DNA of 40,884 nucleotides from a virus, in IMG/VR virus record IMGVR_UViG_3300033153_002296, positions 1 to 40,884 of that record; one strand, 5' to 3'. Of the stretch, positions 12,611 to 34,863 are shown in pieces. Made by a program: the position numbers and the translations under genes. The notes below the pieces were generated by a model. That model was not told where the DNA came from. It ran no database searches and saw nothing but the letters and a program-made list of their open reading frames with translations. The first letter of the stretch is position 1. Every line of letters starts with the position of its first letter.

Positions 12611-14308
12611 ATGGCAGATATATTATCTGCAAAAGGAAATTATATAGCCGCTTATAATAAATATCAACAAGAAACTGGTAGTACAGATCCTAATGTAATA
12701 CATCAAGCAATCACAGGAGATCCGAATTTAGGACTAAATGAAGATGAAAGAAACATATTTGTTAGTGAAACTCCAGAAGAAATGTTAAATCCAGACTATC
12801 TTCCTGTTGAATATCGTAACATTAAATATTCTAAAGAAAATTATATTGCAAGTGTTGCAAATGCTAATAATCATGCGGAGTCTGCTGTATCCCAAAACTA
12901 TGAAGGAGGATCGGAAGTATATAATAAACAAAAGAAAATATATGAAGATAATAAGAAGTACAGTACAGCAAATACGATATCTACACAAGCTTTAAATAAC
13001 TTAAGAAATGATGATATTACTAATTTGGAAATTTTAGCAGATCAAGTTCAAAACGGGGGATTAACAACTGGTGGTAAAGGTTTATACTACAATTTAAATT
13101 CAGACGGAACTATGAATATTTATCATTCTGATGATACTAAACAAAGCAAAAAATTATTTACTCCCCAAGCTAAAAATTTATGGCAAGCTGTATTTGGTGT
13201 AGATCCAGTATTAGTTACAGGTGAAGGTCAAGAGGTTAACGGAGAACGAGTATTACCTTTACATGACTTAATAGAAGCTGATGGCTCTGTTAATATTGGA
13301 AATACTAAACTTGGAGGAAGATATAATGGACGTTCTTTAAATGAATTTTTAAACTTAAGAGGAGTACCTACTGGAGGAGACTCGGATGGAGATAGAATTT
13401 ATGCTTGGTATTTAAATGGAGAAGCGCAAGCTAAATTTTTAAACAGTCAAAAAAGACTAGAAGCCTTTAAAAATGGAGCAACAAATAAATTAACTAATGC
13501 TGAACAACTTACATTTAATGAAGTATCAACAGCATTCCCAAGAGGAAGAGCTTTAAATGAAGCAGATAAAACCTATGTACCAAAAACAGTAAATGCTCAA
13601 GGAAATATAGTAAGTCTTCCAGCTTCAGAAAATACCAATGCAATTTTAGATGATCTTAAAGGACACTTAGACTTATGGGAAATAAGAGATAATGCTACTG
13701 GAAAAATAATAGATAAGAATGATATTGATGCATCAACTATTAAGTTTGCTATGGAGTTAACAAATAAACTTAGAGATGAAGCACAATTTGAAGGAACTGT
13801 TAAGAGAATAGTAGATTATGGCATTTCTGCTACTTCAGATAAACCAATAACAGGAAAAGAAGATGTAAGTGTTACAATGACTCTAACAGGTGCTGAGGCT
13901 GTAGAATACAACTTAATTAGAGCTAGAGAATTATATTCAAATTATTTATCAGATCCTACTACTGTAAGTGGTAGAAATGATTATATAAACTTTGTTGCTT
14001 TTGATAATCCAGACCTTTCCAGAAAAATGTATAAACTAGAAAACAATAATCAAAATCTATATTATAAAGAATCTGGTGTTACCTTTGAAGCTACTCCTCT
14101 AGATAAAGGTAGGTATACTATGAATGTAAGTTATGAAGATAATTTTGGAGTAACGGAGAGTCAAACAGTTGTTGCAAAAACTATTGCAGACGTAGGAAAA
14201 ATAATAAGAGCAACTGCTAAATATGAAAGACTTTTAGAACAAAGTGAAAATCATAGTTGGACAGTACAAGATTTTGAAAACTTCATGTTACAGGAAGAAA
14301 ACTACTAG
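12611..14308 (+). CDS. Putative virion cargo protein, 565 residues
   Basis: The chosen start is ATG 12611, because the ATG that overlaps the upstream stop (12606) opens only a very short frame. The protein is Asn-rich and mixed alpha/beta with no signal peptide or transmembrane segment. There is no recognisable catalytic motif. A helical N-terminus (NYIAAYNKYQQETG) is followed by a beta-containing middle and a helical C-terminal end. It ends at TAG 14306-14308, three bases before the giant polymerase gene, so it is almost certainly co-translated with it. Its position immediately before the virion RNA polymerase suggests it is another component of the ejected complex. I cannot assign a specific role. 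Confidence 0.5.
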   Translation: MADILSAKGNYIAAYNKYQQETGSTDPNVIHQAITGDPNLGLNEDERNIFVSETPEEMLNPDYLPVEYRNIKYSKENYIASVANANNHAESAVSQNYEGGSEVYNKQKKIYEDNKKYSTANTISTQALNNLRNDDITNLEILADQVQNGGLTTGGKGLYYNLNSDGTMNIYHSDDTKQSKKLFTPQAKNLWQAVFGVDPVLVTGEGQEVNGERVLPLHDLIEADGSVNIGNTKLGGRYNGRSLNEFLNLRGVPTGGDSDGDRIYAWYLNGEAQAKFLNSQKRLEAFKNGATNKLTNAEQLTFNEVSTAFPRGRALNEADKTYVPKTVNAQGNIVSLPASENTNAILDDLKGHLDLWEIRDNATGKIIDKNDIDASTIKFAMELTNKLRDEAQFEGTVKRIVDYGISATSDKPITGKEDVSVTMTLTGAEAVEYNLIRARELYSNYLSDPTTVSGRNDYINFVAFDNPDLSRKMYKLENNNQNLYYKESGVTFEATPLDKGRYTMNVSYEDNFGVTESQTVVAKTIADVGKIIRATAKYERLLEQSENHSWTVQDFENFMLQEENY

Positions 14309-14311
14309 AGT

Positions 14312-17300
14312 ATGGCTAAGAAAAACATTCCAGTTGTAGAGGTAGAGGAGAAATTGGACCCAATAACACAGCTTCCCGAATCTTTAGAAAAGCAGAAATT
14401 ACGCAAACCAAGTATTTCTCTCCCTAAAGGAAACTTTAATTATGGAAGACAGGGGACTGGTGTAGGGAAAAATGGAGATAAGAAGAAAAATGAACGTATA
14501 GTTATCCCTGATTTTAAAAGTTATGTACAAACAATAGATAAGTACAAAGATCATTTACCGCAAAATTATCTTGAGCAGAGAGGAATGCCTCAAGGAACAG
14601 GCGTAAGTTTTGAAGAGTTTTATAATAAATTAGGAAATGAGTTTAGGCTAAGTAGTACAACTAATGAATACGACCTTCTTTCTAAATACAATACAGCAGT
14701 ACAGGCAGCAGAAGAAGCCAGAAGAAGAAACCAACCTATAGGAGACCAAATTTTAGGATTTGTAAACCAAACTTTAGTAGGAGAAATACTTGGAGGAACT
14801 TTAGAGGGAATAGGATATCTTTTAGATTGGCAAGATGTAAAGGACGCTTCTAATAATGTTCAAAAAGAATATGGAAATTGGTTGTCAGATATAGGAATAG
14901 GCTTAAAAGAATGGACTAGAGAAGCTACTCCTATTTACGAAGATGATCCTGGCACATATGCTCCCTCTGATTTGGGATGGTGGCTATCAAATGGTGTTTC
15001 CGTAGCATCCACTTTATCTATAATGATACCTGCAGCTGGTTGGGCTAAAGGAACAAGTATGCTTGCAAGAGGAGGTGCTAGATTATCTAGAGCAATTGCT
15101 CCTACTGGAAGATTAGGAAAAGGACTTAAAACATTAAGTAAAGCAGAAAATCCAGCGTCCTATGGTTGGATTACCACAGGATTAAATCAAGCTATTGCCT
15201 CCAGACATGCTGAAAGTATGATGGAATCTTCTGGAATATTTGAACAAGAATATGAGAAAATGATATCTCTCGGTAAGTCAGAAGAACAAGCCACGGAAGC
15301 AGCTGCAAGAGCTGCAACTTTTACATATAATGCAAACTGGGCTATGCTTGCTCAGGATATTCCTCAATATTTATTATTAGGACGAAGCTTTAGGGCAGCT
15401 AAAAAAATTAGAAGTGTAAAGCAAGCAGCAATTGAAGGTACTTCTAAAACTGCCGCTATAAAAAACTATGCAGCTCCTATAGGCTTTGATATGATCAGTG
15501 AAGGTGCGGAAGAAGCTTACCAATTTATGGTTGGAGAAGAGGGAATGTATATGGCTGATATAGAAGCAGGTATAAGAGGAAAAGAGGGTTTTGGAGAAAG
15601 ATATTCAAAATATCTAACAGACGGTCAATTATGGACAGCAGCTACATTTGGAGCTTTTGGTGCGGGTGTAATGCAAACAGCAGGAAGAAAAGTCAATGAT
15701 TACATACTTAAGTCAAAAGGAGGAACTACTGAAAACGAAAGAAGAGTTCTTGAGGCACAAAAGAGAAGTGAGAATATATCATACCACTCAAAACAGATAG
15801 AAGCAGCCGCTGAATCAGGGAATGAAGCTGCTTATTATCAAGCAAAGGCTAATGCTGCTTTTGATCTTGGATTAAATGCTGCTCAGGCTGGTAACCTAGA
15901 TCAACTTATAAGCAACCTTGAAGAAATGAAAGGAACTACTGCTGAAGAAAAAGCACAGTATAACTTAGGAAATGATTTTGCTCTAGGAATTGATGAACTT
16001 ATTGAGGATGTAAAACAAATTGGGGAACTCTATGAAAAGAATGGTCCCAAATATTCAGCTAATTTAATTGCCCCTATTACACAAAGTGAGTTTATGGTAA
16101 ATAAACTTAGTAAGCAAAGACCTCTTTTAAAAGCTGAAATAGAGGAAGCTTATAATAACTTTCCTAGAATAACTGAGCTTTCTGCTAACGGACGTGCAAT
16201 ATTTGATATGCAAATAAATCTGTCTGCTGCTGAAAAAAGAATAGCTGGAGCTGAGTTTATATTAAAAAATAAACAAGGTTTATCTGCTGAAGAAAAAGAA
16301 AAGCTTGAGAAGATAGTTGAAGAACAAAAATTAGCCATAGAAATAGGAAAGACTGCTTTAAAAGCTAAAATACAAGCCCAAGAAACTGAGCTAACAGATA
16401 TTGATAAAAAGATATTAGATAATATAGGAGACAATCCACTAACCAATAATATAGTAGGAGCACAGACTGCTCTAGGTTGGGCTGATGAGCTATTAGATGC
16501 TCATACTCAAAGACTTAAAAAGTTAGGAAGTAAGGAATTTAATAAAGAAGCGCAGGGTATAGAAGTTAGAGAACAAAGAAATGAACAGTTCGCAGATAGA
16601 TTAAGAGAAATTACCACATTACTTACAGAAGGAGCCCAAAAGAAAGAAGTTAAACTTCCTGATGATATAGACTCAAGAGGAGAATTTGTAGCAGGTAAAC
16701 TTGTAGAAGAGTTAGTACCTCTAACTCTACAAGAGAAAAACGAACTTCTTAAAGAAGCTTGGGAACTCTGGTCAGAAATGGGAGGCTTAAGTATTCTTGA
16801 ATTTACAGACGGAAAAAAGAATACATATGATGAATTAACTGCTTCTGAAAAAGAGCGATATAATGAAGAATCTAAAAAACTAAGAAATGATAGAGAAGCG
16901 CTAAGACCTTTCCTTGAAAAACTTAGTGAGGTAGTTAGAAAAGAAAAAGATAAATACTCCAGAAAAGAACGTAGAAGATTAGGAGCAGAAAAAGCTAAAC
17001 TTACAAGACGAAGAAACCAAGTGGCCAGAGACTTGGATGATGAAAGAGCTCGAAGAAAAGAAATTGAGGATATGAAAGATCCTCGTTATGATGATCTTAC
17101 CTTAGCTGAACTATTTGTAGATCCTACAGATGTAATACCCGTAATATTTAAAGGAGAGTTAGCTACATTAAGTATAGACCCTGAAACAAATGAATACTTA
17201 GTTAATGATGAGATTATAATTGCAGGAGGAGGTAATCAAGAAGCATTATATAATCATGATATAGCCATTCCAAAAGATGGATACTATCCTATATCTCTTT

Positions 17301-20300
17301 CAAGTGAAGGAGATAGAGTAGTAATGTATATTGGAGATCATCTTATGATGATCGACACAATTAGTCCTGCAGACTCTATTATAACAGATGAAGCAGGCAA
17401 TATCACTGGAGTTAAACTAATTGATTCTAGAGGAAATGAAGTACTATTTGAAGGAGAACTTAGATATGACATTGCAGATTATTTGCTAATCTATGATGCC
17501 TTATTAGAAGAATTTGTACAGAATCCTTCAAATATGATTATCCCTCTTAAAGATGGTAATTATTTAGTAGAATTTAATCAAGCAGATCCTTTCTCTTCTA
17601 AAGTATATAAAGAGGACAAAAATGGAAAACTTAGGGAAATTTTACCTAAAAGCAAACTTAGAAAAAAAGATGGAAGTTATAACAAGAAAGGACGTATAGT
17701 AAATTCTATCTTAACTAAGTTTAAAGAGGAAGTACTTACTCCTCTAAAAGGAAACCCTTTAAATAAAAATTCAAATGAAACAAACTACGAAAACTCGCCT
17801 TCTGAACAAATTGCAGGACAAGAAATTAATGAAGGACTTGATGAAGATGTCTCCGAAGCAGAGGAGCCAATTCTTGCTGGATCGGAAGAATATCTCCAAC
17901 TCCTTGAGAAAATAAAAGTAGCTAATGACGCAGAACTTGGAGATCTAATTGCTAATATAAAAGAATTAAAAACCACTCTTAATCCTGTAGAAGGAGGTCA
18001 ACTTATGGTGGCCATAGCAAAAAGAGTAAAAGAATTAAAAGTATCTACAGGAGAAGACACAGGCGCTTTAGCCCAAAGCTCAACTGGGAAGGAAATACAA
18101 AACCAATTAGATGATCAATTAACTGCTTCAAGCTCTATAAACGAAGAAGTAAATGGAATTGAGGATGCTTCTACGGTAGTGAGCTCAGACGGTACAGAAA
18201 AGAATTTAGTAGGAACAACTGAAGATGGTAGTAAAGTTTATCAAACTGACGATGGGGTATTAATTTATGAACAATCTGAAGAAGCTAAACAAAAAGCATC
18301 AGAAATAGAGATTCAAGAAATAAAACCAGAAGGACCAACTATAGAAGAACTTGCAGGTATAAGCCCTCTTGCTTCAATTACTGAAATAAATCCTGGGGCA
18401 GAGGCTGTAGGAAAAGGAAAAACTTTGGGAGAAGTAGAATTATCTCCTAAAGAATTAGAATTAACAATTATAGATGGAGAATATACCTTAGTTCTAGACC
18501 CTGTTACACAAGAACCTATATATACAGACGAAAACTATCAACCTGATCTTTCATTATTAAGCAATCCTAATATAGGTGAAGATGCAGAAGTTAGGGTATT
18601 CATTGATGAAAAAACTAAATATTGGGACGAAAAAAAGGATACAATATCTCCGATGAATCATTACTTGGAAGTTCCTATGTATGTAGAAATTAAAGATCCT
18701 GAAAGTGGAGAATTTAAAGTAATAGGTAAATTACGAGCTGGAGAAAAATTTAAAGCAGAAAGACAAGCTATCTGGAGTAATTATCAGAAGGGAGAAAAAA
18801 CTGATGCCCAGGTAAATCTTGTTAGTTATGACTACGCTAATTACAGCAATACTACGAGTGTTCATAATCTAAGGAACGCAAGGACACCACAAGGACTCCC
18901 ATTATGGCAGTCTGGATTTGATGCGTTCAACACTGCATGGAAAGATAATGGAGATGGAACTTTTAGTTTAGAAAGAAAAAATGCTCCTCTTTTTGTATTT
19001 AGTACAATAGGCTCTACAACATTTTTAGGAGAAAACTCATCCACACCTCAACTATATTTAGAAGAAACTTCTGATAAAATGAGGAGAGAGCTTGGATCAA
19101 TTAATTTAACAGGGGCTAAAGGAAATCAAGATGGACAAGTTTGGACAACTGTTATAAATCCAAGTGGACACTACGTTCCAGTAAAACTATCAACATCTAA
19201 TCTATCTCAGGCTGCAGTAGACTATGTAATGTCTCAAATAATATTAGGAAATTTTGAAGAAGCACAAGAAGTAATATATGCAAACTATGAAGACGATCAA
19301 GCTTTACTTTTTGATACATTCATTCAATTAAATGTAAATAAAGCTACAAACGAAAAATACATCAAGTTTAAACCAAACGAAGAATCAGAGGTAATTTACT
19401 CTATAGAATACAAAAGCTTTAGAGAAGCTATAGAAAGCAGTTCAGGTTTAGTAGATGTAAATATAGAAGAACCTAGAATACATAAAGGAAAAACTACACT
19501 CCATAAGGTACCTGGAAAAACTGTTAATATAGAAATAGGGACTGTTCTGCGTAAAATGATTGAAAATAAGAAGTATAATATAAAGAACACAGAACTTAGA
19601 ACAGGAAGAACATATAAAAGTCTTGTAACAGAACAAGAATACCGTAGTTATGAACATTACTTAATGGGTGCTCCAGACATAAATGGAAATCCTAATGAAG
19701 AAGTAGCAGATGCTAGAGACGGGAGACCGACTACAATACTAGCATCAGATGTAAGAGGAACTGATGGTAATTTCTTTTTTGATGTAGGAATGACTTTTAG
19801 TTTAAAAGACTCATTTGCACAAGGTCAAATTCCAGATTTAGCGGCTAAAGAAGAATATGAATTATATCTAGCTGAAACTAAAGAAAGTGATCTTACAGGA
19901 AGAGAAATACCAGAAAAAGGAACAGGTTATACAAAAGGTAAATCAGATGATTTATTTGGTGAGGGCGATCTTGCGCCTAATCCTCTAAAAAATGATAACA
20001 ATTTAGAAGAAGGTGAATTAGGAGATGGTTCCTTTAGTCTAATAGATACTGGAGGAGAACGTATTAATATGGACTTAGCGGCTGCTTGGTTGAATAAGAG
20101 AGGTCTTACATTCAATGAGTCCAGACAAGTGCTTAAATTGGGACATTTAGATGCCTCTACAGCTGGTGTTTTTCATGAAGGTCTAATTTACTTAAGTAAG
20201 AATGCAGAAATAGGAACTGAATACCACGAAGCATTTCATGCTGTATTCAGATCTTTTTTAACAGATGCACAGCAAGAACAAATTTTAAAAGAAGCTGGAA

Positions 20301-23300
20301 CAGTAACTGCAGCGGAGTTAAAACAAAGAGAATCAGAAGGATACTTTACTAAAAAGGGTGGTAAAATATTTAAAAAAACTATAAGAGGAGAACAAGAAAT
20401 AAGCAAAGAAGAGCTTAACAATATGATTCTAGAAGAACGACTAGCAGAACAATTCAGAGGCTATGTTACATCTAATCAAAAACCTTCAGGATTATTAAGC
20501 AGAGTAGCAAAATTCTTTAAAGATTTATTAAACTATATCAAAACTTACCTTACCAAAGGAAGAACAATCGATCAACTTTTCTCTAATATAGAGTCTGGAA
20601 GAATTAATCGCAGATATACAAACAAAAGATTCCAGAGAGAAGCTGCATTTTCTCTTAAGAAAGGATTTACTACTTCTGAACAGGAAGAAGTATTGGATAC
20701 TATAAATATTGAATTTAAAAAACTATATGAAGAACTCGAACAAGGAGTAGATCCTAATATAATCTACAATAATATTAGAAATCAATTCTTGACCTCAATG
20801 TTTGTTACCAAAGATTCTACAGGACATGTAACAAACCCTCCAATTAATATAGCTAAGAAACATTACGACCTTCTTTCGGAGGGAGGTAAAAATTTCACAG
20901 CTAAAAAAGATGCTAATATAAATGTTAGTGCTAAATGGAAGATATTTGGAAGTATATACAAAAATTGGAATACTCAATTTTCTAAAGATGAATTAGAAAA
21001 TCCTGTAGAAAATGGTTGGGTATATTTAGCTAAAAGACAGCTTCCTAAACATGGATTAAAAGTACACGGAGATCTTACCTCAGAACTTGAAGATGATATA
21101 TTTGAAGAACGCATATATGGAAGAAACTATGCAGAAGAGAGCAGAAAAGATTCTTTATCAGGAAAAGTAAAATCTTTCTTAAGCAGAGTTCCTATGTTAA
21201 TAGACGGAAAACCTGTAAAAAATATCTTAGGTACTAATAAAACAGTTCCTTTTGATGAAATATATCAAGAAGTAGCATATACTATCATCAATTCCGTAAC
21301 ATTTAACGACATGTTAAATAAGCTTAGATTTTCTGGAAACAATAAAGAAGTTCTAAACACTGTAGCTGATATGTTAGATCAGGAAGTAAGTAATAAAAAC
21401 TGGGAATTTATAGCGGACTTCTATAAGAATATGTCTCTGACTTATTTAGACTTTGTAGGAGCTATAGAAGAAGTAGATATTGTAGAATTAGAAGGTGGAA
21501 ATCAGGATGTTACAATCAAGATAAGATACTTTAATACCAATACTAATAAGTCTGAAAATAGAATCTTTAAAAAATGGAATTTAGAATCCAAAAGAAGTGA
21601 TAATAAAGGATTATTTAGTAAAGATGATTTTGGTACATTAAAAATAAACCAGACTAAGGCTGCCAATATGAAGAAGGCTTTAGATATAATTCAAGAAATA
21701 AAGAACGATATAGCTGTTCCCGAAATGAGACATATAACTGCTCTTTCTTCTTTTCTAGATTCAATGTCAATAGATATACCCTCCTCTATCTTAAGAAATG
21801 CTTTAGATAATGGAATAAAGGTGGGCAATAAAGTTCTTAAATCAGGTGAGCTATATAGATATTTAACTTCTGGAACCTCTTCTCATAGTAATAATAATGT
21901 AGGAATTGATACTTTATTAAAAAATATAGAAAATGGAAAAGATCCATTTGTAACAGATAGAAGTGTTATAAATAGATTTTTAAAAATATCTAAAGAATTT
22001 GAAGCTTCTGTGCAGGGATCCTTTATAAACGGAGAAGGAAAGTCTATACATCCTATAAATATGCATACAACTCTAACTAGAATGTTTGCAAGCTTTAAAA
22101 ACTTTAACCCCGATTCAACAGAATTTTGGAATCTATGGGTTAGAGATTTTATGGAAGATCCATTTTATTTTCCTGAAGGGGCTTTAGTAGATAGTCCCAA
22201 TAACTCCTTATTCTTATCTTCAATAGTTTCTAACAAATCTAAGTTCAAAAGTATTCTAGCATATGAAGAATTTGACACGTATAAGAAAAAGAATGAAATT
22301 ACTTCTCAAAATACCTTTGAGAATATGTCTCCTTTATTATCAAAATTACATAGATTAAATTCTTTTGCTAATAATGGTAGTAAAAGACAAATGAAAATTG
22401 TTCTACCTACATTGGCAGACAGATCTAAAATGGCACTTCTAACTATTCCAAGAATAAGTTATAATAAAAAACTACACCAATATAAAACCAAAAATATTGA
22501 AGAAATATTCCTTGGATACGTAGTACAAGACCTAAAAAGGGCCCAAAGAGTACAAGCAGACATTCAAGCGGGAGCTCTTAAAATAGAAAGTTTACATAAA
22601 CATAAAGAAAGTCCTAGAGGATTGAGATTCAGTCAGTTTGAATTTTTAAATGAGACCGAAGCAGGACAAGAACTTCTAAAGTATGCATTAGATAACTCTG
22701 ATGATCAACTATTATACAGTAGTAATGATTCAGCTAGAAAAAAACAAGGAGAACAACCCAAAGTTTATTCTTTATTTAAAAATGTTTTAGATGAGATAGA
22801 TACATATGTTAATAATCAAGTACAAGAACAGCTTAAAGATATAAGAGAAAAAAATATAAACTCTACACAGGGTAGAAGAAAAGTAAATCAAATAGATCCA
22901 GGAGGACTTGCCCTTTATGAAAATAGTGTAGAAGACTTTATTAAAGATTATGTTGCGGCTAATATAATAGCTAAAAATGAGATTATAAAAATGACTGCAG
23001 GAGATTTAGCTCTCTATAAAGACTATGCAACAACTTCAAAAAGATATGGAGGATTAGCTACTCCAGGACTTGAAGCCTTCTTGAAAGAATTTGCAGATGG
23101 AGCTACTTATGGCGACATGGCAACCTATCAAATGGGAGCCGTAGAAGATATCTTTAAATTAGATTCCAAAAATCTAGATGCTTTAGAGGAGCTAGCAGGA
23201 AAAGCAGCTGTAAAAGCTTATAGAAAAGGGTCCAATAAAACAGATGCAATGGGCCTTACAACTTTAGCTAAACATAAAGCTAAGATGGAAGGTCAGGGAA

Positions 23301-26300
23301 CTTGGGGAGATAATCATGATATGGCTTATAAGAACTATCTTAATACTGGAAAGTTCTCATTTACAGACATTGAAGGAAATACTATAAAACCTAAACTAAG
23401 TCCAATTAAAACATACCACGATGGCCTTTATTTACAAAACGGTAGAATAGTAAGAGTTTTAGTTAAACACTCTACAATGCCTCTACTTGAAGAATTTACT
23501 AAAAACCATCCAGCATTTGATTCTTTAAGAGAGCATATGGAACTTAATAAAATAGATGAAATTAATATGGATTCTGGTATTAAGGTAGGACTTACTGCTC
23601 CTCTTAAACTTAAGTTTGATGAAAATGGTTACATAACTAACCTAAAAGATTTATATTCTATGGAATTAAATACAAGATTTCAAAGAATACCTCAGATAAT
23701 TCCTGAAAGTGGTAAAGAAGGAAAAATAGGATCTCAGTTTATGAAACTTCTTCCTGCTAACATTAAAAATAATTTAGATGGGAAGTATGATGTTGCTGGA
23801 GTATCTATGACAGGGGAAGAACTACTGGAAGCATATCAAGATACAATAATAAAAATGATAGCTAATGGTAGGAACCGTTTATATGGGGAATTAGGTTACT
23901 CTGAATATCTCAAATCTAATAAAGATAAAGGAGCTAAACTTAGCTTTCTTAAAAAACTAAGACAAGTTTTAAGAAAATCTGCAGAAAGTAATGACTTACC
24001 AGATAATTACATCAACGCCCTTGACTTAAAACCAATAGTTAAATATCTAGAAACAGGACCTATAAATACCTATGACTTTGCAACTCCATTAGGAATGCCT
24101 GCTTATCAGAAGAAATATGAACAAATCATATTCAGTTTATTCAAAAAAAATCTATTAAGATTAGGTATAAATGGAAATGCTTTAGTACAGATTGCTGAAC
24201 TTGGAGGTTTTAGAGAACAGAATGGCCCCGTTCAAGATTTAAATTTTGTTAAAAATGAAGAAGGAAGAATAATATCTGCAGAAGTAGCATTACCTTATCA
24301 TCTAGCTGAGAAGCTAAATCTTCCTAAAGATGAAAATGGAGAATTTGATTTATCTAGTGTAGACCCAACTCTTTTAGAAATTATAGGATACCGTATACCT
24401 ACACAAGGTAAGAACTCAATGCTTCCTCTTAAGATAAAAAGAGTTCTTCCTGAAGCAATGGGTAAAGCTATATTAGTTCCTGGAGAAATCACAACTCAAA
24501 TGGGGTCGGATTTTGATATTGATAAGTTATTCTTAATGTTCCCTAATGCAGATATACGATATACTACAGAGAGTGGAGAAAAATGGAATGAACTTGGAGC
24601 ATTTAAATCTCAACTCAAAGAATCAGGATTTGATTTAAGTGACAAAGAAGCAGATCTAATTTTAAAAGATCCTATACATAGTGATGAGGTTTTAAGATAC
24701 AATACAGTAGAACTGGATGAAGCAGCGACTAAGGCTAGAGACTATATAAATAGTAAAAAGAAAGAACTTGGAGTTAAAGCAAAAGCAGTTAAAGTCAGAT
24801 ATGATATTAAAAATCTTAAAACAGGAAATAAAAGAGGATTAGAAAATGCTTTTATTGATATATCTAATGCAGTTCTTACAAATCCTGCACATCTTTCTGA
24901 AATGTTACAAACTGTTGATTCTCAGACTCTACCTGATGCCGTTAAGGAAATAAGAAAATCAGATCCAGCAGCATTCCCAGAAAATCTAGATCCACAGAAT
25001 GTAATGACTGAAGAGAAACTGGAGTATAGAAATAAAGTAGGAAAGACGGGAATAGCTATAGAAGCAACCGCATTAACAGGAGCAGCTATAGGACAGAACT
25101 CAAAGAATCTTAAATTAGAAGGAAAATCAGCTATTAAATTTGATAGTAAAAAGAAAACTGCATTAAACAGAACAGAAGATGACTCTGGAAATCTTATTAC
25201 ATATCTCATAAATAAATACCTTAACCTTGCTGTAGATAATGGTAAGAATCCTATGATGGATGTTATTGAGGCTAACCCATTTACATTTCCTGTAATTAAT
25301 CTTATCATGAGAGCAGGTCCTACTAACAAAAGACTTGCAGTAAAAGGAACTGAGCTCACTGGAGACGCCTCTGAAGTGGCTACCTGGTTTGTAACTCAAC
25401 CGATTATAAGAGAATTGCATGAAACTTATTTAAATGAAGAAGGAAATCCAGGATTACTCTACAATTTTGTACAAAAAATTGGTATGAAGCATTTTGGAAA
25501 AGACTGGAAAATGAGTGATCATAAAAGAACTGTGAATATTAATTCTGTAGCAATGAAGGATTTTGTTCTTGAAAATAAGAAAATAGAAGATGATTTAATG
25601 TTCCAGGAAAATGTACTTGTTAATTTCTTCCATTACCATAAAGCAGGTAGTATGCTTAATAAATTAAATAGAGCCTATAATTCTGATAGAATAAAGGATA
25701 TGAGCTCCATGGCAGCCATAGAAGAATACATGCAGGTAAGAGAAGAACTGCAGGACCCTATAAGAAACAAATATTTAGAAGGCTTTGATGATATACTTGA
25801 GGGAAGAACATGGCCAATAAGCAATGCCTTTAATGATGCTATAATGGATGCAGTTACTTTCGCAGATGAATTTTTTCCTTTTATGAAAGAGGGAATATTA
25901 AGCGCTAAAAGAAATATAAGAAAAGATCTTAATAAAAATAACTTAACTAAAGATCAAATTCAAGCAATTAATAATGCTTCAATGACTTGGTTCTATAGTC
26001 AAAAACAAATACCAAGCCCATTAAGTCCATTATTCAGTACAGAATGGGAGTATAATCTACTAACAGGTCCTAATAATATAGAAATACAATATCTCCACTT
26101 AAGAGATTTAATAGAAGATGCTGTTAAAATAGAACCTAATTCTGAACTAGCTAAACTTGCTGATAATAAAATGTTCTTGTCTTTAGATACTCATCTAGAT
26201 AATAGTAAAGTAATAGACTATAATGTAGAAAGAAAAAGCGAAATAAAAGAAAAATTTAAACATAAAATTCTCTCCTTCGATTACTCATATACTCTAAGCG

Positions 26301-26941
26301 CAGCTGAAGTTTCTGCTATTTCTGATGATTTCGGAAAACTTATCTATCATGAAAGTGAAACTGTAAGAAATTTTGCCAAAAATTTAGTGTATTACAATAT
26401 ACTAAGTAAAGGATTTGTTACAGGAATAGACTCTTTTACTGATATAATTCCTAATGAAGTATGGAATGATGCAGAATTTTCTTTACAAGATGATAAAATA
26501 TCTATATCTGAATTTTATGAAACTTATCAAGAAGCATTTGATAATCCTAATTTCTGGTACGGCTTTTCAGAAGAATTTATAGAGAATAATAGTCATTTAA
26601 GAAATTTAATTCCTACTTTAAGGTCAGGAAAGACTATTAATGTAACTAAGGAAGAAATTATTATGAATGAAAAATCTCAAGTACATAATAGAGATCTTAA
26701 TTCTTTTGTAAGATACTTCAAAATATTTGATAATAACAATAAACAATATGTACTTTATAAGAAAGTAAGAGATAGAGCATCTACTGCAACTTATAAGAGA
26801 ATGGATCGTCCAACAGGAGTTCCTTTTAAACTTCAACAATATAATTTTGAAGCAATAACGGGAGCAACAGTATTTAAAGCAATTAAAAAGAGTAATACTC
26901 CTGCAGAAAGACTGAAAGCTCTTAGAAAAATTTGTCCATAA
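14312..26941 (+). CDS. Giant virion RNA polymerase polyprotein (4209 residues) with embedded zincin-like protease
   Basis: One continuous reading frame of 12.6 kb. Visible regions: residues about 150-260, hydrophobic segments (LVGEILGGTLEGIGYLL, VSVASTLSIMIPAAGW) that may help ejection; about 470-930, long coiled coils; about 1150-1400, acidic low-complexity linker; His1972-Glu-x-x-His1976 (EYHEAFHAV) with a downstream EERLAEQF at 2041-2048, a zinc-metalloprotease (zincin) pattern with a plausible third ligand; and at 3400-3404 the DFDID triad in MGSDFDIDKLF, preceded by RIPTQGKNS, the catalytic signature of the double-psi beta-barrel RNA polymerase of crAss-like phages (phage phi14:2 type, related to eukaryotic RNA-dependent RNA polymerases). 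About 800 residues follow the triad, as in the family. It is inferred to be packaged, ejected and used for early transcription. The protease may process this or neighbouring proteins. Start ATG 14312 lies 3 nt after the previous stop. Confidence 0.85.
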   Translation: MAKKNIPVVEVEEKLDPITQLPESLEKQKLRKPSISLPKGNFNYGRQGTGVGKNGDKKKNERIVIPDFKSYVQTIDKYKDHLPQNYLEQRGMPQGTGVSFEEFYNKLGNEFRLSSTTNEYDLLSKYNTAVQAAEEARRRNQPIGDQILGFVNQTLVGEILGGTLEGIGYLLDWQDVKDASNNVQKEYGNWLSDIGIGLKEWTREATPIYEDDPGTYAPSDLGWWLSNGVSVASTLSIMIPAAGWAKGTSMLARGGARLSRAIAPTGRLGKGLKTLSKAENPASYGWITTGLNQAIASRHAESMMESSGIFEQEYEKMISLGKSEEQATEAAARAATFTYNANWAMLAQDIPQYLLLGRSFRAAKKIRSVKQAAIEGTSKTAAIKNYAAPIGFDMISEGAEEAYQFMVGEEGMYMADIEAGIRGKEGFGERYSKYLTDGQLWTAATFGAFGAGVMQTAGRKVNDYILKSKGGTTENERRVLEAQKRSENISYHSKQIEAAAESGNEAAYYQAKANAAFDLGLNAAQAGNLDQLISNLEEMKGTTAEEKAQYNLGNDFALGIDELIEDVKQIGELYEKNGPKYSANLIAPITQSEFMVNKLSKQRPLLKAEIEEAYNNFPRITELSANGRAIFDMQINLSAAEKRIAGAEFILKNKQGLSAEEKEKLEKIVEEQKLAIEIGKTALKAKIQAQETELTDIDKKILDNIGDNPLTNNIVGAQTALGWADELLDAHTQRLKKLGSKEFNKEAQGIEVREQRNEQFADRLREITTLLTEGAQKKEVKLPDDIDSRGEFVAGKLVEELVPLTLQEKNELLKEAWELWSEMGGLSILEFTDGKKNTYDELTASEKERYNEESKKLRNDREALRPFLEKLSEVVRKEKDKYSRKERRRLGAEKAKLTRRRNQVARDLDDERARRKEIEDMKDPRYDDLTLAELFVDPTDVIPVIFKGELATLSIDPETNEYLVNDEIIIAGGGNQEALYNHDIAIPKDGYYPISLSSEGDRVVMYIGDHLMMIDTISPADSIITDEAGNITGVKLIDSRGNEVLFEGELRYDIADYLLIYDALLEEFVQNPSNMIIPLKDGNYLVEFNQADPFSSKVYKEDKNGKLREILPKSKLRKKDGSYNKKGRIVNSILTKFKEEVLTPLKGNPLNKNSNETNYENSPSEQIAGQEINEGLDEDVSEAEEPILAGSEEYLQLLEKIKVANDAELGDLIANIKELKTTLNPVEGGQLMVAIAKRVKELKVSTGEDTGALAQSSTGKEIQNQLDDQLTASSSINEEVNGIEDASTVVSSDGTEKNLVGTTEDGSKVYQTDDGVLIYEQSEEAKQKASEIEIQEIKPEGPTIEELAGISPLASITEINPGAEAVGKGKTLGEVELSPKELELTIIDGEYTLVLDPVTQEPIYTDENYQPDLSLLSNPNIGEDAEVRVFIDEKTKYWDEKKDTISPMNHYLEVPMYVEIKDPESGEFKVIGKLRAGEKFKAERQAIWSNYQKGEKTDAQVNLVSYDYANYSNTTSVHNLRNARTPQGLPLWQSGFDAFNTAWKDNGDGTFSLERKNAPLFVFSTIGSTTFLGENSSTPQLYLEETSDKMRRELGSINLTGAKGNQDGQVWTTVINPSGHYVPVKLSTSNLSQAAVDYVMSQIILGNFEEAQEVIYANYEDDQALLFDTFIQLNVNKATNEKYIKFKPNEESEVIYSIEYKSFREAIESSSGLVDVNIEEPRIHKGKTTLHKVPGKTVNIEIGTVLRKMIENKKYNIKNTELRTGRTYKSLVTEQEYRSYEHYLMGAPDINGNPNEEVADARDGRPTTILASDVRGTDGNFFFDVGMTFSLKDSFAQGQIPDLAAKEEYELYLAETKESDLTGREIPEKGTGYTKGKSDDLFGEGDLAPNPLKNDNNLEEGELGDGSFSLIDTGGERINMDLAAAWLNKRGLTFNESRQVLKLGHLDASTAGVFHEGLIYLSKNAEIGTEYHEAFHAVFRSFLTDAQQEQILKEAGTVTAAELKQRESEGYFTKKGGKIFKKTIRGEQEISKEELNNMILEERLAEQFRGYVTSNQKPSGLLSRVAKFFKDLLNYIKTYLTKGRTIDQLFSNIESGRINRRYTNKRFQREAAFSLKKGFTTSEQEEVLDTINIEFKKLYEELEQGVDPNIIYNNIRNQFLTSMFVTKDSTGHVTNPPINIAKKHYDLLSEGGKNFTAKKDANINVSAKWKIFGSIYKNWNTQFSKDELENPVENGWVYLAKRQLPKHGLKVHGDLTSELEDDIFEERIYGRNYAEESRKDSLSGKVKSFLSRVPMLIDGKPVKNILGTNKTVPFDEIYQEVAYTIINSVTFNDMLNKLRFSGNNKEVLNTVADMLDQEVSNKNWEFIADFYKNMSLTYLDFVGAIEEVDIVELEGGNQDVTIKIRYFNTNTNKSENRIFKKWNLESKRSDNKGLFSKDDFGTLKINQTKAANMKKALDIIQEIKNDIAVPEMRHITALSSFLDSMSIDIPSSILRNALDNGIKVGNKVLKSGELYRYLTSGTSSHSNNNVGIDTLLKNIENGKDPFVTDRSVINRFLKISKEFEASVQGSFINGEGKSIHPINMHTTLTRMFASFKNFNPDSTEFWNLWVRDFMEDPFYFPEGALVDSPNNSLFLSSIVSNKSKFKSILAYEEFDTYKKKNEITSQNTFENMSPLLSKLHRLNSFANNGSKRQMKIVLPTLADRSKMALLTIPRISYNKKLHQYKTKNIEEIFLGYVVQDLKRAQRVQADIQAGALKIESLHKHKESPRGLRFSQFEFLNETEAGQELLKYALDNSDDQLLYSSNDSARKKQGEQPKVYSLFKNVLDEIDTYVNNQVQEQLKDIREKNINSTQGRRKVNQIDPGGLALYENSVEDFIKDYVAANIIAKNEIIKMTAGDLALYKDYATTSKRYGGLATPGLEAFLKEFADGATYGDMATYQMGAVEDIFKLDSKNLDALEELAGKAAVKAYRKGSNKTDAMGLTTLAKHKAKMEGQGTWGDNHDMAYKNYLNTGKFSFTDIEGNTIKPKLSPIKTYHDGLYLQNGRIVRVLVKHSTMPLLEEFTKNHPAFDSLREHMELNKIDEINMDSGIKVGLTAPLKLKFDENGYITNLKDLYSMELNTRFQRIPQIIPESGKEGKIGSQFMKLLPANIKNNLDGKYDVAGVSMTGEELLEAYQDTIIKMIANGRNRLYGELGYSEYLKSNKDKGAKLSFLKKLRQVLRKSAESNDLPDNYINALDLKPIVKYLETGPINTYDFATPLGMPAYQKKYEQIIFSLFKKNLLRLGINGNALVQIAELGGFREQNGPVQDLNFVKNEEGRIISAEVALPYHLAEKLNLPKDENGEFDLSSVDPTLLEIIGYRIPTQGKNSMLPLKIKRVLPEAMGKAILVPGEITTQMGSDFDIDKLFLMFPNADIRYTTESGEKWNELGAFKSQLKESGFDLSDKEADLILKDPIHSDEVLRYNTVELDEAATKARDYINSKKKELGVKAKAVKVRYDIKNLKTGNKRGLENAFIDISNAVLTNPAHLSEMLQTVDSQTLPDAVKEIRKSDPAAFPENLDPQNVMTEEKLEYRNKVGKTGIAIEATALTGAAIGQNSKNLKLEGKSAIKFDSKKKTALNRTEDDSGNLITYLINKYLNLAVDNGKNPMMDVIEANPFTFPVINLIMRAGPTNKRLAVKGTELTGDASEVATWFVTQPIIRELHETYLNEEGNPGLLYNFVQKIGMKHFGKDWKMSDHKRTVNINSVAMKDFVLENKKIEDDLMFQENVLVNFFHYHKAGSMLNKLNRAYNSDRIKDMSSMAAIEEYMQVREELQDPIRNKYLEGFDDILEGRTWPISNAFNDAIMDAVTFADEFFPFMKEGILSAKRNIRKDLNKNNLTKDQIQAINNASMTWFYSQKQIPSPLSPLFSTEWEYNLLTGPNNIEIQYLHLRDLIEDAVKIEPNSELAKLADNKMFLSLDTHLDNSKVIDYNVERKSEIKEKFKHKILSFDYSYTLSAAEVSAISDDFGKLIYHESETVRNFAKNLVYYNILSKGFVTGIDSFTDIIPNEVWNDAEFSLQDDKISISEFYETYQEAFDNPNFWYGFSEEFIENNSHLRNLIPTLRSGKTINVTKEEIIMNEKSQVHNRDLNSFVRYFKIFDNNNKQYVLYKKVRDRASTATYKRMDRPTGVPFKLQQYNFEAITGATVFKAIKKSNTPAERLKALRKICP

Positions 26942-29900
26942 TGGCATGTAAAATTAAAACTATACAAGGAGAAGATAGTTCTTTATACACAGAACTGGAA
27001 CAAAAATTCGGTACTAAGATTGCTGATAATACTTATGCTTTGATCATAGGCAATGACTTTCGTGCGACTTTTGGTAATTGGGAATTATATCACAACTTTG
27101 ATTACATTAAGAAAAACATACTTAAGCCAGAGCATGCTACCATGGAAGAAGCAGAGAAGCATGTTAAAGAATTAGATAAAAGATTTGGACCAGGTACTGC
27201 ATTTACAAGAGCTGCAAAGGTAGCTAAAGGAGAAAAAGAAGAGTACGGTTGGAGAGTCTCCTTAATTAAACCTAAAGCTAAAGATGTATCTTATGCAGTA
27301 AATAAACAAGGAGAGCCTAGTTTAATGTATATGATAGGATACGATAAAAACTTTTCACCCGATGGATTCATATTTTCTAGTGATATAAACAAAGCAGGAT
27401 GGCAAGAAAAATTTGATATTGCTGAATTAGAAGGATATGAAGGGGAAGTTCCAATTCCAGGAGCAGAAGAAGCATTACCTGTATTTTTAAATGTCAGAAA
27501 TCCAGAAGAAAATAGAAGAATGGGGAATGCCCCAATAGATAGTAAAGCAAGAGAAGGAGAAATAACAATAGAGAATGATAAACAAGTTATATTGGCTACA
27601 CAAGGTATCAGTGAGGATACTGCGAAAGCAAGCGAAGAAGTCCCTACGCAACCTGAAACCACGGACGAGGCTATAATAAGAGCAGAGACAGAGGGATTAA
27701 CAGCCAAAGGTAAGGAAGAATTAGAAAACAGAAAAAAACTAGCTAAAAAGGCAGTTGCAATACTTAAAAAGAAATTAACTTTCTTTAAAAGAAAAGAAGG
27801 TAAAAAGAGTTCTGTAGCTAAAGGTCTAGAAAAACAAATTCTAAATATTCAAAAACAGATAGCCAAAGGAGAGCATATGCTTGCTATCATGTCTTTCTTA
27901 GAGTTTGCTTATGCTGAAGCTGAAGGTGCTGTGAAAGTAAATATACCAGCAATAGTAGATGCTATTAACGACCCTAAAACGGATACTAGAGAAAAGAGAA
28001 TGCTTCTTAAGAAACTTTCAAGAGCAGCTGATTATCTAAGTGCTTTTGATTTAGTTCAAGAGATCTACGATGACTTAAAAAACCAGAGTTTTTCTAGTAG
28101 TGAAGTAGAAGGCGAAGTAATTGATCAAGCTTTTAGAGACGCCTATATTTCTCCTGTAATTACTACGATAAGAGAAGTAAAAAGGGACTATATTAAAGCA
28201 TCTAAAGGAATAGTAGTAGACTTTCTAATGGAATATAATACTAATCCTAATTTAACATCAGATAAGTTAACACAGCTTTTTACCCATGTCCAAGATGATA
28301 TAAGTTGGTTTCAAACAAATCTAGATTCTATGGCAGAATCTCCTGATCAAGTATTGGCATTAATCGATAGAGTTATTTCTACAAAGCAAGCAGAAATAAA
28401 CTACAATATGGAAACCTTTAAGAATACTGAATTTAAAAAGGCTATTACTGAACTAGAAACTTATAAAAAAAGACAAGGGGTTTCCATAACTAATTATGAT
28501 AGGCTCTATGACTTTATGCTTGCTAAAGATAAAAGTGGAAAACTTACTGGATATTATATAGATCCTGATTCTAAGCAAGGTAAAGCATTAGCTGCTCCTG
28601 AAAAGGCCTTTCTAAAAATGTTCCATGAACAGTATGCTAAACATCAAAAAATGCTCCCTGTAGGGTTTAGAAGAGGCTATCAATTAATACCTATTCTTAA
28701 ATCAGGAGCTCAAAGAGCTTGGGAAGATGTAAAAGGGTTTAAATCTGGAGCTCGTGCTGCTAAAAAGTATATGGGAGACCAAGTTAAAATGAGGTCAGAT
28801 GAGACTGAATTTGGTGAAGTATTTGTAGATGAACAAGGGAAAGAATACAATTTTATTCCTATACACTATTCTGCTAGAATAAACAATAATGAAAAGGAAT
28901 CAGGCTTATATATAGATGATGTATCTATGAATATGGGAGGCAGTCTTCTTCAATTTATGACCATGGCTAAAAATTATGCAGCTATGAATAGTGTAATAGT
29001 AGAATTAGAAGCTGCTAAAACACTAGTAGGAGAAAGAGATGTTACAGTTAAAAGAGGAAAACAAACTTTAGTTCATAAAGGAGAACCTGATAGGATATTA
29101 ACTGAAAAAGGAGAAAAATCTAGAGCATATGAAAGACTTACTACATTCTTTGATATGATAGTTTATGGTAGAAGAAAAGTAGATACAGGAAATCTTGGAA
29201 ATACTGATATTAGCAAAGATAAAGTTGCAGACGGTTTAACTCGATATACAGCGCTTACCCAATTATCTTTAAACCTTTTCTCAGGAATTAATAATGCGGC
29301 TATAGGTGCTGTAATGAATGCGGTAGAATCAGCTGGAGGTCAATTTTACAATAGAAAACAGTTTGCAGGAGCTGTAGCAGAATATACTAAAATGTACCCT
29401 GAATTTATAAGAGACTCTACAGCAAGATTCTCTAAGAACTGGTTAAATCTCTATATGGAGTCATATGATATATACCAAGAGTTTGATCAATTTGGCAAGC
29501 CTATAGAATCTTCTTCAAAAACTGGTAGAATCCTTTCAAAAGCTTCATATTTCTTACAAACATCTGGAGAACATATGATACAATCAGAACTTACCTTGGC
29601 CATGATGAGATCTCACAGATTAATTGGTAAAGAAATAATGAATCATAGTGATTGGGCTGTTAAGCACAATAAACCTATTAATAAAGAATCTTTAAAAGAG
29701 TTTGAAGCATCTGGAAAAACAGTAAAAGAACTTATAGAGATAAAAGAAGGTAAGGTTTGGACTAAAGAAAAAGTAACAAGAGAGCAAATGATTAGATTTG
29801 CTGAAAGAATTAAAGGAGTTTATCAAAGACTGCATGGTAACTACGCTACTAAAGATAGAGCAGCTTTACAAAGATATGCTTTAGGGAGAATGGTGCTACT

Positions 29901-30561
29901 GTTTCGTAAATGGTTAAGGCCAGGGTGGAATAGAAGATACGCAGCCGCTACTTTTGATAATGAAGATACATTTGATCAAAGATTAGGCGCCAACATTGCA
30001 GGTAATTATACAATAGCGTGGCAATTTATAAAACAAATAAGACACGATCTTAAAGGAACAGGAATAGGGTTAGCTATTCTTAACAAAGATAAGAATGGTT
30101 GGAACAACTTACCTGAATGGAAGAAACAAGGAATCAAAAGAACTTTTGCAGAAATAGGATGGTTTACAGGAGCATTATTACTCATATCCATATTAGGAGC
30201 TCCAGATGACGATGATGACGAGGATGGTTTAATAGCTGGAGCTAAAAATATGGCAATTTATCAAGCATATAGACTAAAATCTGAAATAGCATTTTATGCC
30301 TTACCCTTCTCACTAGGAGAAGCTGGAAAAATATTAAAATCTCCTTCTGCAAGTGTATCTACAGTTGAGAAGCTAGGAAAAGCTCTTTGGTATACGACTG
30401 AACCTATGTTCACTTTTGAATTTGATAGATACAAAAGAGGAAAAAGAAAAGGAAAAACTAAAGCATCACGTTACTGGTGGGAACTTTTACCTTATGGAAA
30501 CCAAATACAAAGACTTGAACATACAAAAGAAAGTGCTAAATTTATGCAAAATCTATGGTAG
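26941..30561 (+). CDS. RNA-polymerase-associated virion protein with degenerate ART-like domain, 1206 residues
   Basis: The ATG at 26941 overlaps the polymerase stop (TAATG); a TTG nine bases upstream is less likely. Residues 118-190 read AVNKQGEPSLMYMIG, then GFIFSSDINKA and PVFLNVRNP, matching the pattern of ADP-ribosyltransferase domains found in phage polyvalent proteins (GEPxxVYHGT ... FFxSxxxA ... VFLNIRNP), but the YHGT histidine position holds Met131, so activity is doubtful. The middle (300-500) is helical. The C-terminal 230 residues contain a basic YALGRMVLLFRKWLRPGW block, a likely membrane helix (GWFTGALLLISILGA, about 1073-1087), then DDDDDED and a basic end; this tail is typical of the last protein of the virion polymerase block in Bacteroidota phages. 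It is the last gene of the plus operon, ending in TAG. Confidence 0.6.
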   Translation: MACKIKTIQGEDSSLYTELEQKFGTKIADNTYALIIGNDFRATFGNWELYHNFDYIKKNILKPEHATMEEAEKHVKELDKRFGPGTAFTRAAKVAKGEKEEYGWRVSLIKPKAKDVSYAVNKQGEPSLMYMIGYDKNFSPDGFIFSSDINKAGWQEKFDIAELEGYEGEVPIPGAEEALPVFLNVRNPEENRRMGNAPIDSKAREGEITIENDKQVILATQGISEDTAKASEEVPTQPETTDEAIIRAETEGLTAKGKEELENRKKLAKKAVAILKKKLTFFKRKEGKKSSVAKGLEKQILNIQKQIAKGEHMLAIMSFLEFAYAEAEGAVKVNIPAIVDAINDPKTDTREKRMLLKKLSRAADYLSAFDLVQEIYDDLKNQSFSSSEVEGEVIDQAFRDAYISPVITTIREVKRDYIKASKGIVVDFLMEYNTNPNLTSDKLTQLFTHVQDDISWFQTNLDSMAESPDQVLALIDRVISTKQAEINYNMETFKNTEFKKAITELETYKKRQGVSITNYDRLYDFMLAKDKSGKLTGYYIDPDSKQGKALAAPEKAFLKMFHEQYAKHQKMLPVGFRRGYQLIPILKSGAQRAWEDVKGFKSGARAAKKYMGDQVKMRSDETEFGEVFVDEQGKEYNFIPIHYSARINNNEKESGLYIDDVSMNMGGSLLQFMTMAKNYAAMNSVIVELEAAKTLVGERDVTVKRGKQTLVHKGEPDRILTEKGEKSRAYERLTTFFDMIVYGRRKVDTGNLGNTDISKDKVADGLTRYTALTQLSLNLFSGINNAAIGAVMNAVESAGGQFYNRKQFAGAVAEYTKMYPEFIRDSTARFSKNWLNLYMESYDIYQEFDQFGKPIESSSKTGRILSKASYFLQTSGEHMIQSELTLAMMRSHRLIGKEIMNHSDWAVKHNKPINKESLKEFEASGKTVKELIEIKEGKVWTKEKVTREQMIRFAERIKGVYQRLHGNYATKDRAALQRYALGRMVLLFRKWLRPGWNRRYAAATFDNEDTFDQRLGANIAGNYTIAWQFIKQIRHDLKGTGIGLAILNKDKNGWNNLPEWKKQGIKRTFAEIGWFTGALLLISILGAPDDDDDEDGLIAGAKNMAIYQAYRLKSEIAFYALPFSLGEAGKILKSPSASVSTVEKLGKALWYTTEPMFTFEFDRYKRGKRKGKTKASRYWWELLPYGNQIQRLEHTKESAKFMQNLW

Positions 30562-31451: not shown

Positions 31452-31458
31452 TTTATCT

Positions 31459-33335: not shown

Positions 33336-33339
33336 TGTT

Positions 33340-34551: not shown

Positions 34552-34556
34552 TAGTT

Positions 34557-34790: not shown

Positions 34791-34840
34791 TTTTTTTAAT
34801 TTTTAGCGATTAATAATTATATATAAATATACGAAAAATA

Positions 34841-34853
34841 AGGGACTTTCCCT
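34841..34853 (-). terminator. Short hairpin with T-run after the rIIA-like gene
   Basis: In minus orientation, AGGGA-AAG-TCCCT forms a 5-bp stem with a 3-nt loop followed by TATTTTTC. It sits about 10 nt after the rIIA-like stop and before the AT-rich leader of the HTH gene. The stem is short, so it may be an attenuator or partial terminator that lowers rIIB expression relative to rIIA. Confidence 0.5.
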
Positions 34854-34863
34854 CATATAAAGG

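What the first reader, a model, noticed from the sequence alone, without database searches (positions are those of the whole stretch)
14312..26941. Virion RNA polymerase fused behind a zincin-like protease in one 4209-residue protein
The same frame contains HEAFH (1972-1976) with a downstream EERLAEQF and, 1400 residues later, DFDID (3400-3404). The protease sits between an acidic low-complexity linker and the polymerase, so it is well placed to cut the giant protein into a separate ejection part and polymerase. Self-processing or cleavage of neighbouring cargo is an attractive hypothesis; the known crAss-like polymerase is a much shorter protein.
Basis: partly seen in the sequence, partly recalled or inferred. 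Interest (0 to 1): 0.65.

Follow-up and report, generated by a model that had tools for sequence, protein, structure and literature searches.

The report
Phage polymerase train, linked by end-cysteines
This giant phage protein is one stretch of a roughly 5,500-residue chain that crAss-like phages inject into bacteria, and wherever that chain is split into separate genes the broken ends carry a cysteine on each side, as if the pieces were stapled back together by disulfide bonds, which would be a new way to deliver a polymerase in single file.

Summary
In detail: one 4209-aa ORF holds HEAFH (1972), EERLAEQF (2041) and DFDID (3400). The window is a crassvirus. The polymerase is a homologue of phi14:2 gp66 (PDB 6VR4). 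The protease-like domain is a conserved zincin whose close relative folds like ArdC/PPEP-1. The pairing is not new: p-crAssphage gp45 is already annotated as fused to a zincin protease, and crAss RNAP genes reach ~6000 aa. Self-cutting is not supported: fused chains without the zincin exist, split chains with it exist, and presence does not follow fusion on the tree.

Comparing 157 crassvirus loci showed something else. Head, zincin, RNAP and tail form one modular chain that is nearly cysteine-free. As one ORF it can hold zero Cys in 5,641 aa. At nearly every tested break the upstream piece ends in a Cys and the downstream piece begins M-x(1-5)-C. True chain ends lack Cys. The window protein has exactly one Cys, at its second-last residue; the next gene starts MAC. 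The ends carry homologous modules that recur at different break positions.

Best explanation: pieces are disulfide-linked head to tail and ejected as one thread. The cysteine rule is strong; the disulfide is inferred.

The parts
14312..26941 (+). 4209-aa chain piece: gp47-type head + zincin + virion RNA polymerase in one frame; exactly one cysteine (residue 4208)
14612..15751 (+). head region (aa ~100-480), hydrophobic; profile shared with gp47-type proteins of other crassviruses
20057..20641 (+). zincin-like domain (aa ~1916-2110)
   Evidence: homologues at the C-terminus of crAss001 gp47 and others; fold of a homologue
20225..20239 (+). HEAFH motif (aa 1972-1976)
   Evidence: invariant H, E, H in alignments A5 and A6
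20432..20455 (+). EERLAEQF (aa 2041-2048); E2042 the likely third zinc ligand
   Evidence: second Glu kept in all 17 genomes and invariant in A6
20642..26938 (+). RNA polymerase part (aa ~2111-4209)
   Evidence: homology to crAss001 gp50, phi14:2 gp66 and 6VR4
24509..24523 (+). DFDID catalytic motif (aa 3400-3404)
26933..26935 (+). TGT codon of the only cysteine (aa 4208, ...LRKICP*)
26941..30561 (+). next chain piece, gp49-type 'tail' protein, 1206 aa from ATG 26941 (overlaps the stop as TAATG); the ORF caller began at TTG 26932
   Evidence: same position as crAss001 gp49 / phi14:2 gp65; N-terminus MACK, its only cysteine at residue 3
26947..26949 (+). TGT codon of the N-terminal cysteine (residue 3) of the gp49-type protein; predicted disulfide partner of Cys4208
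12611..14308 (+). preceding cargo-type gene; ends without cysteine (true head end of the chain)

Best explanation
The 4209-aa protein is the first part (head + zincin + RNAP) of a modular cargo chain of about 5,400-5,700 aa that crassviruses package and eject; the neighbouring 1206-aa gp49-type protein is the rest. Shown: across crassviruses the chain is one to three or more ORFs, it is strongly depleted of cysteine, and each gene break is marked by a cysteine near the C-terminus of the upstream piece and one within a few residues of the N-terminus of the downstream piece, often on homologous end modules. Inferred: these two cysteines form an intermolecular disulfide in the virion, docked by the end modules, so that peptide bond and disulfide are interchangeable ways of keeping one continuous chain. 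The chain is then pushed head-first and partly unfolded through the narrow tail in single file, and the reducing host cytoplasm opens the disulfides so that the polymerase pieces refold and transcribe early genes. In the window the predicted bond is Cys4208 to Cys3 of the gp49-type protein. The zincin is a conserved, probably active metallopeptidase whose target is not the junction as such.
For: Border test without selection on Cys, 157 non-redundant loci: RNAP-ORF/next ORF both Cys 104, neither 6, only downstream 5, only upstream 0; previous ORF/RNAP ORF 53, 31, 4, 0. The five downstream-only cases have their last Cys 16-50 residues from the end. Background gene pairs in the same loci: both 7 of 205; Cys 1.55% there against 0.137% inside the chain. 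Homology-defined classes: head domain inside the RNAP ORF, N-terminal Cys 0/35; separate head, 26/26; separate tail, RNAP-end Cys 63/63 in the last 50 residues; tail fused, 0/4. Separate heads end in Cys 27/29, heads begin with Cys 0/58, separate tails begin with it 66/66 (looser N-terminal test), tails end with it 0/51. Complete chains: minimum Cys count 0, 2 and 4 for 1, 2 and 3 pieces, with 3/6, 10/34 and 8/13 exactly at it. At least 13 and 8 changes of junction state on the tree; independent contrasts 6/6 and 6-7/7 agree. L095 (unbroken) versus L064/L098 (broken inside the RNAP): the split adds an end module with Cys on each side. N-modules are homologous between break positions, 52% over 62 aa, E 1e-16. 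C/N module pairs learnt at one junction recur together at the other, p = 4e-6, uncorrected for kinship. Seven loci where gp47 lies on the opposite strand keep both Cys. crAss001 virions contain other disulfides and must unfold cargo to eject it (PMC10172136).
Against: No biochemical evidence of the bond. Assembly happens in a reducing cytoplasm, so oxidation must be late or catalysed. Some lineages (Suoliviridae, Intestiviridae, some code-15 phages) carry up to 27 further Cys in the RNAP ORF, only some of them explained by inteins. C-terminal modules are not detectably homologous by profile across all junctions. Whether each Cys pairs with the neighbour or with itself is inferred from co-loss on fusion. 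One split RNAP ORF (L205) lacks the N-terminal Cys. Part of the 'fused' calls for the tree used absence of an N-terminal Cys when the head profile gave no hit; the homology-only subset does not.
Confidence: 0.72

Rival explanations
1. One reading: the zincin cuts the giant protein between the ejection part and the polymerase (self-processing or cleavage of neighbouring cargo).
For: The zincin sits at the gp47/RNAP boundary, where the genes are split in crAss001, Dulem virus 41 and p-crAssphage; catalytic residues are conserved; raw counts favour fused forms, 55/74 versus 27/60, p = 7e-4. Zincin autoprocessing is proposed for polyvalent phage proteins (PMC5512222).
Against: No association once kinship is allowed for. 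Fused chains without the zincin exist (e.g. L024, L027, L033, >5,400 aa). It is kept in split gp47 genes, where that cut is already made. N4 vRNAP, also with a zincin, is packaged unprocessed (PMC5512222).
Confidence: 0.15
2. The terminal cysteines link like with like (homodimers of gp47, RNAP or gp49) or bind a metal or virion wall site, not the neighbouring piece.
For: Any exposed terminal Cys could do this; copy numbers of several per virion are estimated (PMC10172136).
Against: It does not explain why both Cys of a junction are absent when the neighbours are fused, nor why break positions that differ all carry a pair.
Confidence: 0.12
3. The paired cysteines are traces of joining at the level of translation, RNA or protein splicing (ribosome hopping between matched codons, frameshift, trans-splicing), giving one polypeptide.
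For: Cys codons are the same on both sides in 86 of 104 junctions; gene borders are tight (median 2 nt).
Against: 18 of 104 codon pairs differ; all three relative frames occur; gp47 on the opposite strand follows the rule; no intein halves at the ends; crAss001 virions yield gp47, gp49 and gp50 as separate entries by MS.
Confidence: 0.04
4. Terminal cysteines are packaging or processing tags unrelated to linkage.
For: Short terminal motifs often are tags; T7 gp14 has one Cys at residue 2.
Against: Fully fused chains, which are presumably packaged too, lack any tag and can have no Cys at all; tags would not need to come in pairs at breaks.
Confidence: 0.07

Closest known systems
PhicrAss001 gp47 / gp50 / gp49 (Steigviridae cargo proteins)
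   Same: Same three modules; gp47 ends in a zincin and ...RCNS, gp50 begins MSKRC and ends ...KICGANTLYEL, gp49 begins MAKKC
   Different: Three genes on two strands; in the window gp47 and gp50 are one ORF without junction cysteines
Cellulophaga phage phi14:2 gp66 virion RNAP (PDB 6VR4)
   Same: Homologous RNAP core, E 2e-37; Cys near both ends
   Different: 2180 aa, separate gene; its gp67 has no HExxH
p-crAssphage (Carjivirus) gp45 and gp44
   Same: gp45 annotated as RNAP-associated protein fused to zincin protease; gp44 is RNAP fused to the next subunit
   Different: Fused at the other junction: RNAP with tail instead of head with RNAP
Suoliviridae RNAP (cr4_1, cr50_1, cr118_1)
   Same: Same head-zincin-RNAP fusion, 4272-4946 aa, with C-terminal Cys
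   Different: More internal cysteines, some with code 15
N4 virion RNAP and T7 gp15/gp16 (ejected proteins)
   Same: Also cysteine-free (0 in 3500, 747 and 1318 aa); N4 vRNAP also carries a zincin (PMC5512222)
   Different: Single polypeptides without terminal cysteines; N4 enzyme is of another polymerase type (own knowledge)
Zincin metallopeptidases of polyvalent proteins (ArdC)
   Same: Top fold match of the zincin homologue
   Different: Not fused to a DxDxD RNAP; match is weak by E-value
Docking domains of split polyketide synthases (own knowledge)
   Same: Works alike: C- and N-terminal modules that order separate giant proteins head to tail and are absent when fused
   Different: Non-covalent; no cysteine pair; no sequence relation tested

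Membership tests
Crassvirales | crass-specific ring, muzzle and cargo proteins next to the giant RNAP genes | tested here: met
   Pfam ring 1 (2e-54), ring 2 (2e-35), muzzle (1e-140)
crAss-type virion RNA polymerase | sequence homology to phi14:2 gp66 around the DxDxD loop | tested here: met
   tblastn 7e-19; profile versus 6VR4 2e-37
crAss-type virion RNA polymerase | packaged in the virion and active on early genes | not testable with these tools
   Shown for relatives only (PMC10136315)
Zincin metallopeptidase | HExxH plus Glu on the next helix, conserved | tested here: met
   (A5 was chosen with a motif filter; the 17 genomes were not chosen for the Glu)
Zincin metallopeptidase | zincin fold | tested here: inconclusive
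   Window segment: poor model, no match. Homologue L233: core pLDDT >90, top hits ArdC and PPEP-1, best E 0.12
Zincin metallopeptidase | peptidase activity | not testable with these tools
   needs expression and assay
Self-processing polyprotein | protease kept wherever the parts are fused | tested here: not met
   absent in 19 of 74 fused forms; no phylogenetic association
Cysteine-linked cargo chain (proposed here) | Cys on both sides of each gene break, none at true chain ends | tested here: met
Cysteine-linked cargo chain (proposed here) | disulfide between consecutive pieces in virions | not testable with these tools
   needs non-reducing gels or disulfide mapping

The most novel reading that the evidence does not exclude
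Crassviruses deliver their early polymerase as one covalent, head-to-tail protein thread in which peptide bonds and cysteine-capped docking modules are interchangeable links; the disulfides hold it together in the virion and are opened by the reducing host cytoplasm, so the redox step is the release switch.
Probability: 0.68. Interest if true: 0.92.

Novelty: categorically new. Interest (0 to 1): 0.85.

Why it matters
How phages push megadalton-scale folded cargo through a tail channel narrower than 50 Angstrom, and in the right order, is open (PMC10172136). A conserved cysteine pair at gene breaks says that continuity of the chain matters, and it gives exact residues to mutate or map in culturable phages. 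It also offers a reason why the RNAP genes of the commonest human gut phages look so different in size, and would be a natural redox-released protein-linking system. The parts (RNAP, zincin, cargo) are known; the linking rule was found in no held paper, but two key papers (Yutin 2018, Drobysheva 2021) are not held.

Tried and rejected
(1) Pfam and PHROGs on the whole protein gave nothing useful. (2) AlphaFold2 on the window's own zincin segment was poor and matched nothing; a homologue without the window's insertion worked better. (3) Zincin as cutter of the fusion: rejected as a general rule. (4) Translational hopping or frameshift: rejected. (5) C-terminal modules as one family: profile not significant, only pairwise cases such as L014/L076, E 2e-6. 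(6) Different N-module types within one genome as address labels: no significant avoidance. (7) A control counting M-x-C near the start of 'other long ORFs' was contaminated by unrecognised chain pieces and is not used. (9) The paper text does not give the reduced/non-reduced mass spectrometry tables.

Full report
CHECK OF THE OBSERVATION. The frame 14312-26941 (+) is open for 4209 codons and holds HEAFH at 1972-1976, EERLAEQF at 2041-2048 and DFDID at 3400-3404. HExxH is expected 0.05 times by composition, D-x-D-x-D about 0.9 times, so only homology makes the second meaningful. It does: the region matches the polymerases of crAss001, phi14:2 and many others, and a 16-sequence profile finds the solved phi14:2 enzyme 6VR4 at E 2e-37. 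Ring proteins 1 and 2 and the muzzle protein identify the window as a crassvirus. An IMG/VR contig (L001) encodes the same protein at 100% over aa 8-4209.

WHAT THE PROTEASE PART IS. The segment aa ~1916-2110 is homologous to the C-terminal end of gp47-type proteins. HExxH and the second Glu of E-E-x-x-A-E are kept in 17 genomes covering three families. The AlphaFold2 model of the window's own segment was weak (mean pLDDT 72) and matched nothing. The homologue from L233, 35% identical, gave a confident core with helix, sheet, HExxH helix and Glu helix; its six best PDB matches are the zincins ArdC and PPEP-1/Zmp1, with weak E-values from 0.12. So the zincin reading is well supported by conservation and moderately by fold. 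It is not new: p-crAssphage gp45 is annotated as fused to a zincin protease, and zincins in ejected phage proteins, with proposed autoprocessing, are described (PMC5512222).

WHY THE FUSION IS NOT SPECIAL BY ITSELF. In crAss001 the same parts are gp47, gp50 and gp49 on two strands. In Dulem virus 41 and cr111_1 they are three genes in a row. In Intestiviridae RNAP and tail are fused. In Suoliviridae head, zincin and RNAP are fused as in the window. In environmental relatives all three can be one ORF of about 5,500-5,700 aa. The zincin follows none of this: 55 of 74 upstream-fused and 27 of 60 split chains have it, with no association in independent contrasts, and the fused chains L024, L027 and L033 lack it.

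THE CYSTEINE RULE. The window protein has one cysteine in 4209 residues, at position 4208, and the next gene begins MAC. In 20 annotated crassvirus genomes each separate gp47-type protein ends with a Cys, each separate RNAP has one near the N-terminus and one near the C-terminus, and each gp49-type protein has one near its N-terminus where the frame could be read; fused forms lack the pair at the fused joint. To test this I fetched 219 IMG/VR loci by the RNAP core and reduced all loci to 157 at 85% core identity. Taking borders by position only, the RNAP ORF and the next ORF both carry a terminal Cys in 104 cases, neither in 6, only the downstream one in 5, only the upstream one never; for the previous ORF and the RNAP ORF the counts are 53, 31, 4 and 0. 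The five downstream exceptions have the Cys 16-50 residues from the end. The 'neither' cases at the upstream border are the true head of the chain. Among 205 gene pairs outside the chain only 7 have both.

NON-CIRCULAR CLASSES. With profiles for the head and the tail: head inside the RNAP ORF, N-terminal Cys 0/35; head in a separate ORF, 26/26. Tail separate, RNAP ORF with Cys in its last 50 residues 63/63; tail fused, 0/4. Separate heads end in Cys in 27 of 29; of the other two, one has it 25 residues from the end (L147) and the other (cr108) is an intron-interrupted fused form. No head begins with a Cys (0/58) and no tail ends with one (0/51). Chance of a Cys in 11-14 residues at the interior density is 1.5-1.9%. 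The head profile finds only half of the long fused ORFs, so tree labels for the rest used length together with absence of an N-terminal Cys; on that tree the upstream joint changes at least 13 times and the downstream joint at least 8 times, and 6/6 and 6-7/7 independent contrasts agree with the rule.

COUNTS. For complete same-strand chains the smallest number of Cys is 0 for one piece, 2 for two pieces and 4 for three, and 3 of 6, 10 of 34 and 8 of 13 chains sit exactly there. Chain interiors hold 0.137% Cys against 1.55% in neighbouring genes. Some extra Cys lie in an intein, as in L095. N4 vRNAP (3500 aa) and T7 gp15 and gp16 have none, so avoiding Cys may be general for ejected proteins, and the terminal ones in crassviruses stand out.

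NATURAL EXPERIMENTS. L095 is unbroken where L064 and L098 are broken inside the polymerase, 266 codons before DFDID: homology runs to fused residue 2727 and resumes at 2742 (46% and 56% identity to L064), while the broken forms add about 90 residues ending in Cys and about 60 residues beginning MAC. The window's nearest relative in the set, L154/L023 (60% core identity), is broken just before the zincin, at the place corresponding to aa ~1891-1917, and shows ...IINCN and MALGC there; the window is unbroken there and has no Cys.

END MODULES. The first ~60 residues of downstream pieces are homologous between break positions: L051 RNAP and L175 gp49-type share 52% over 62 aa, E 1e-16, and the two profile searches (residues after the Cys only) found 14/67 and 29/109 with 0 and 1 of 628 decoys. 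C-terminal modules are shared in single cases (L014 gp47 end and L076 RNAP end, E 2e-6). Profiles trained on nine upstream C/N pairs predicted which downstream joints carry the matching pair (8/11 against 8/98, p 4e-6, uncorrected for kinship). That C- and N-modules travel together suggests that they touch.

MECHANISM. Shown: the sequence rule, repeated gain and loss with fission and fusion, exchangeable end modules. Inferred: a disulfide between consecutive pieces, single-file ejection, and release by reduction in the host. Two thiols per joint fit a disulfide. The pair persists where gp47 is on the opposite strand, codons often differ and all frames occur, which speaks against joining during translation. 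crAss001 virions do contain disulfides, and its cargo has to unfold to pass constrictions under 50 Angstrom (PMC10172136).

LIMITS. All evidence is sequence-based. No held paper mentions the rule, but the 2018 and 2021 papers that defined these polymerases could not be read.

Noticed in passing
L064 (about codons 378-620 of the second piece), L095 (aa 3059-~3413): An intein-like insertion with LAGLIDADG motif inside the RNAP; it accounts for all but one of the Cys of L095 (the one left is the C-terminal one).
   Followed up: partly
L013 (cr108) 16256-16549; also L012 (cr116), L022 (bajarodcaudo virus 1): The RNAP gene is interrupted exactly inside the catalytic DFDID loop (...AGSD* then LYDIDK...), as if by an intron.
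   Followed up: no
gp49-type proteins, e.g. L026, L035, L036, L044, L054: A second HExxH (often HEF[GS]H) recurs about 1250-1520 residues before the C-terminus of the tail protein: possibly another metal site.
   Followed up: no
L242 (N4) and L243 (T7): N4 vRNAP, gp51 and gp52 and T7 gp15 and gp16 contain no cysteine at all: cysteine avoidance may be general for ejected virion proteins.
   Followed up: partly
window 33340-37509 (-): RIIA-like (with HATPase domain) and RIIB-like genes in a crassvirus.
   Followed up: no
window 30780-33359 and 38421-39452 (-): Uracil-DNA glycosylase, PD-(D/E)XK nuclease and a primase with a weak DnaG zinc-ribbon match.
   Followed up: no
L064, L098: The polymerase itself is split a few hundred residues before its catalytic loop, so two polypeptides would have to reassemble into one enzyme after ejection.
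   Followed up: partly
L077, L091, L101: Chains in further pieces; in L077 and L091 a middle piece carries Cys at both ends.
   Followed up: partly
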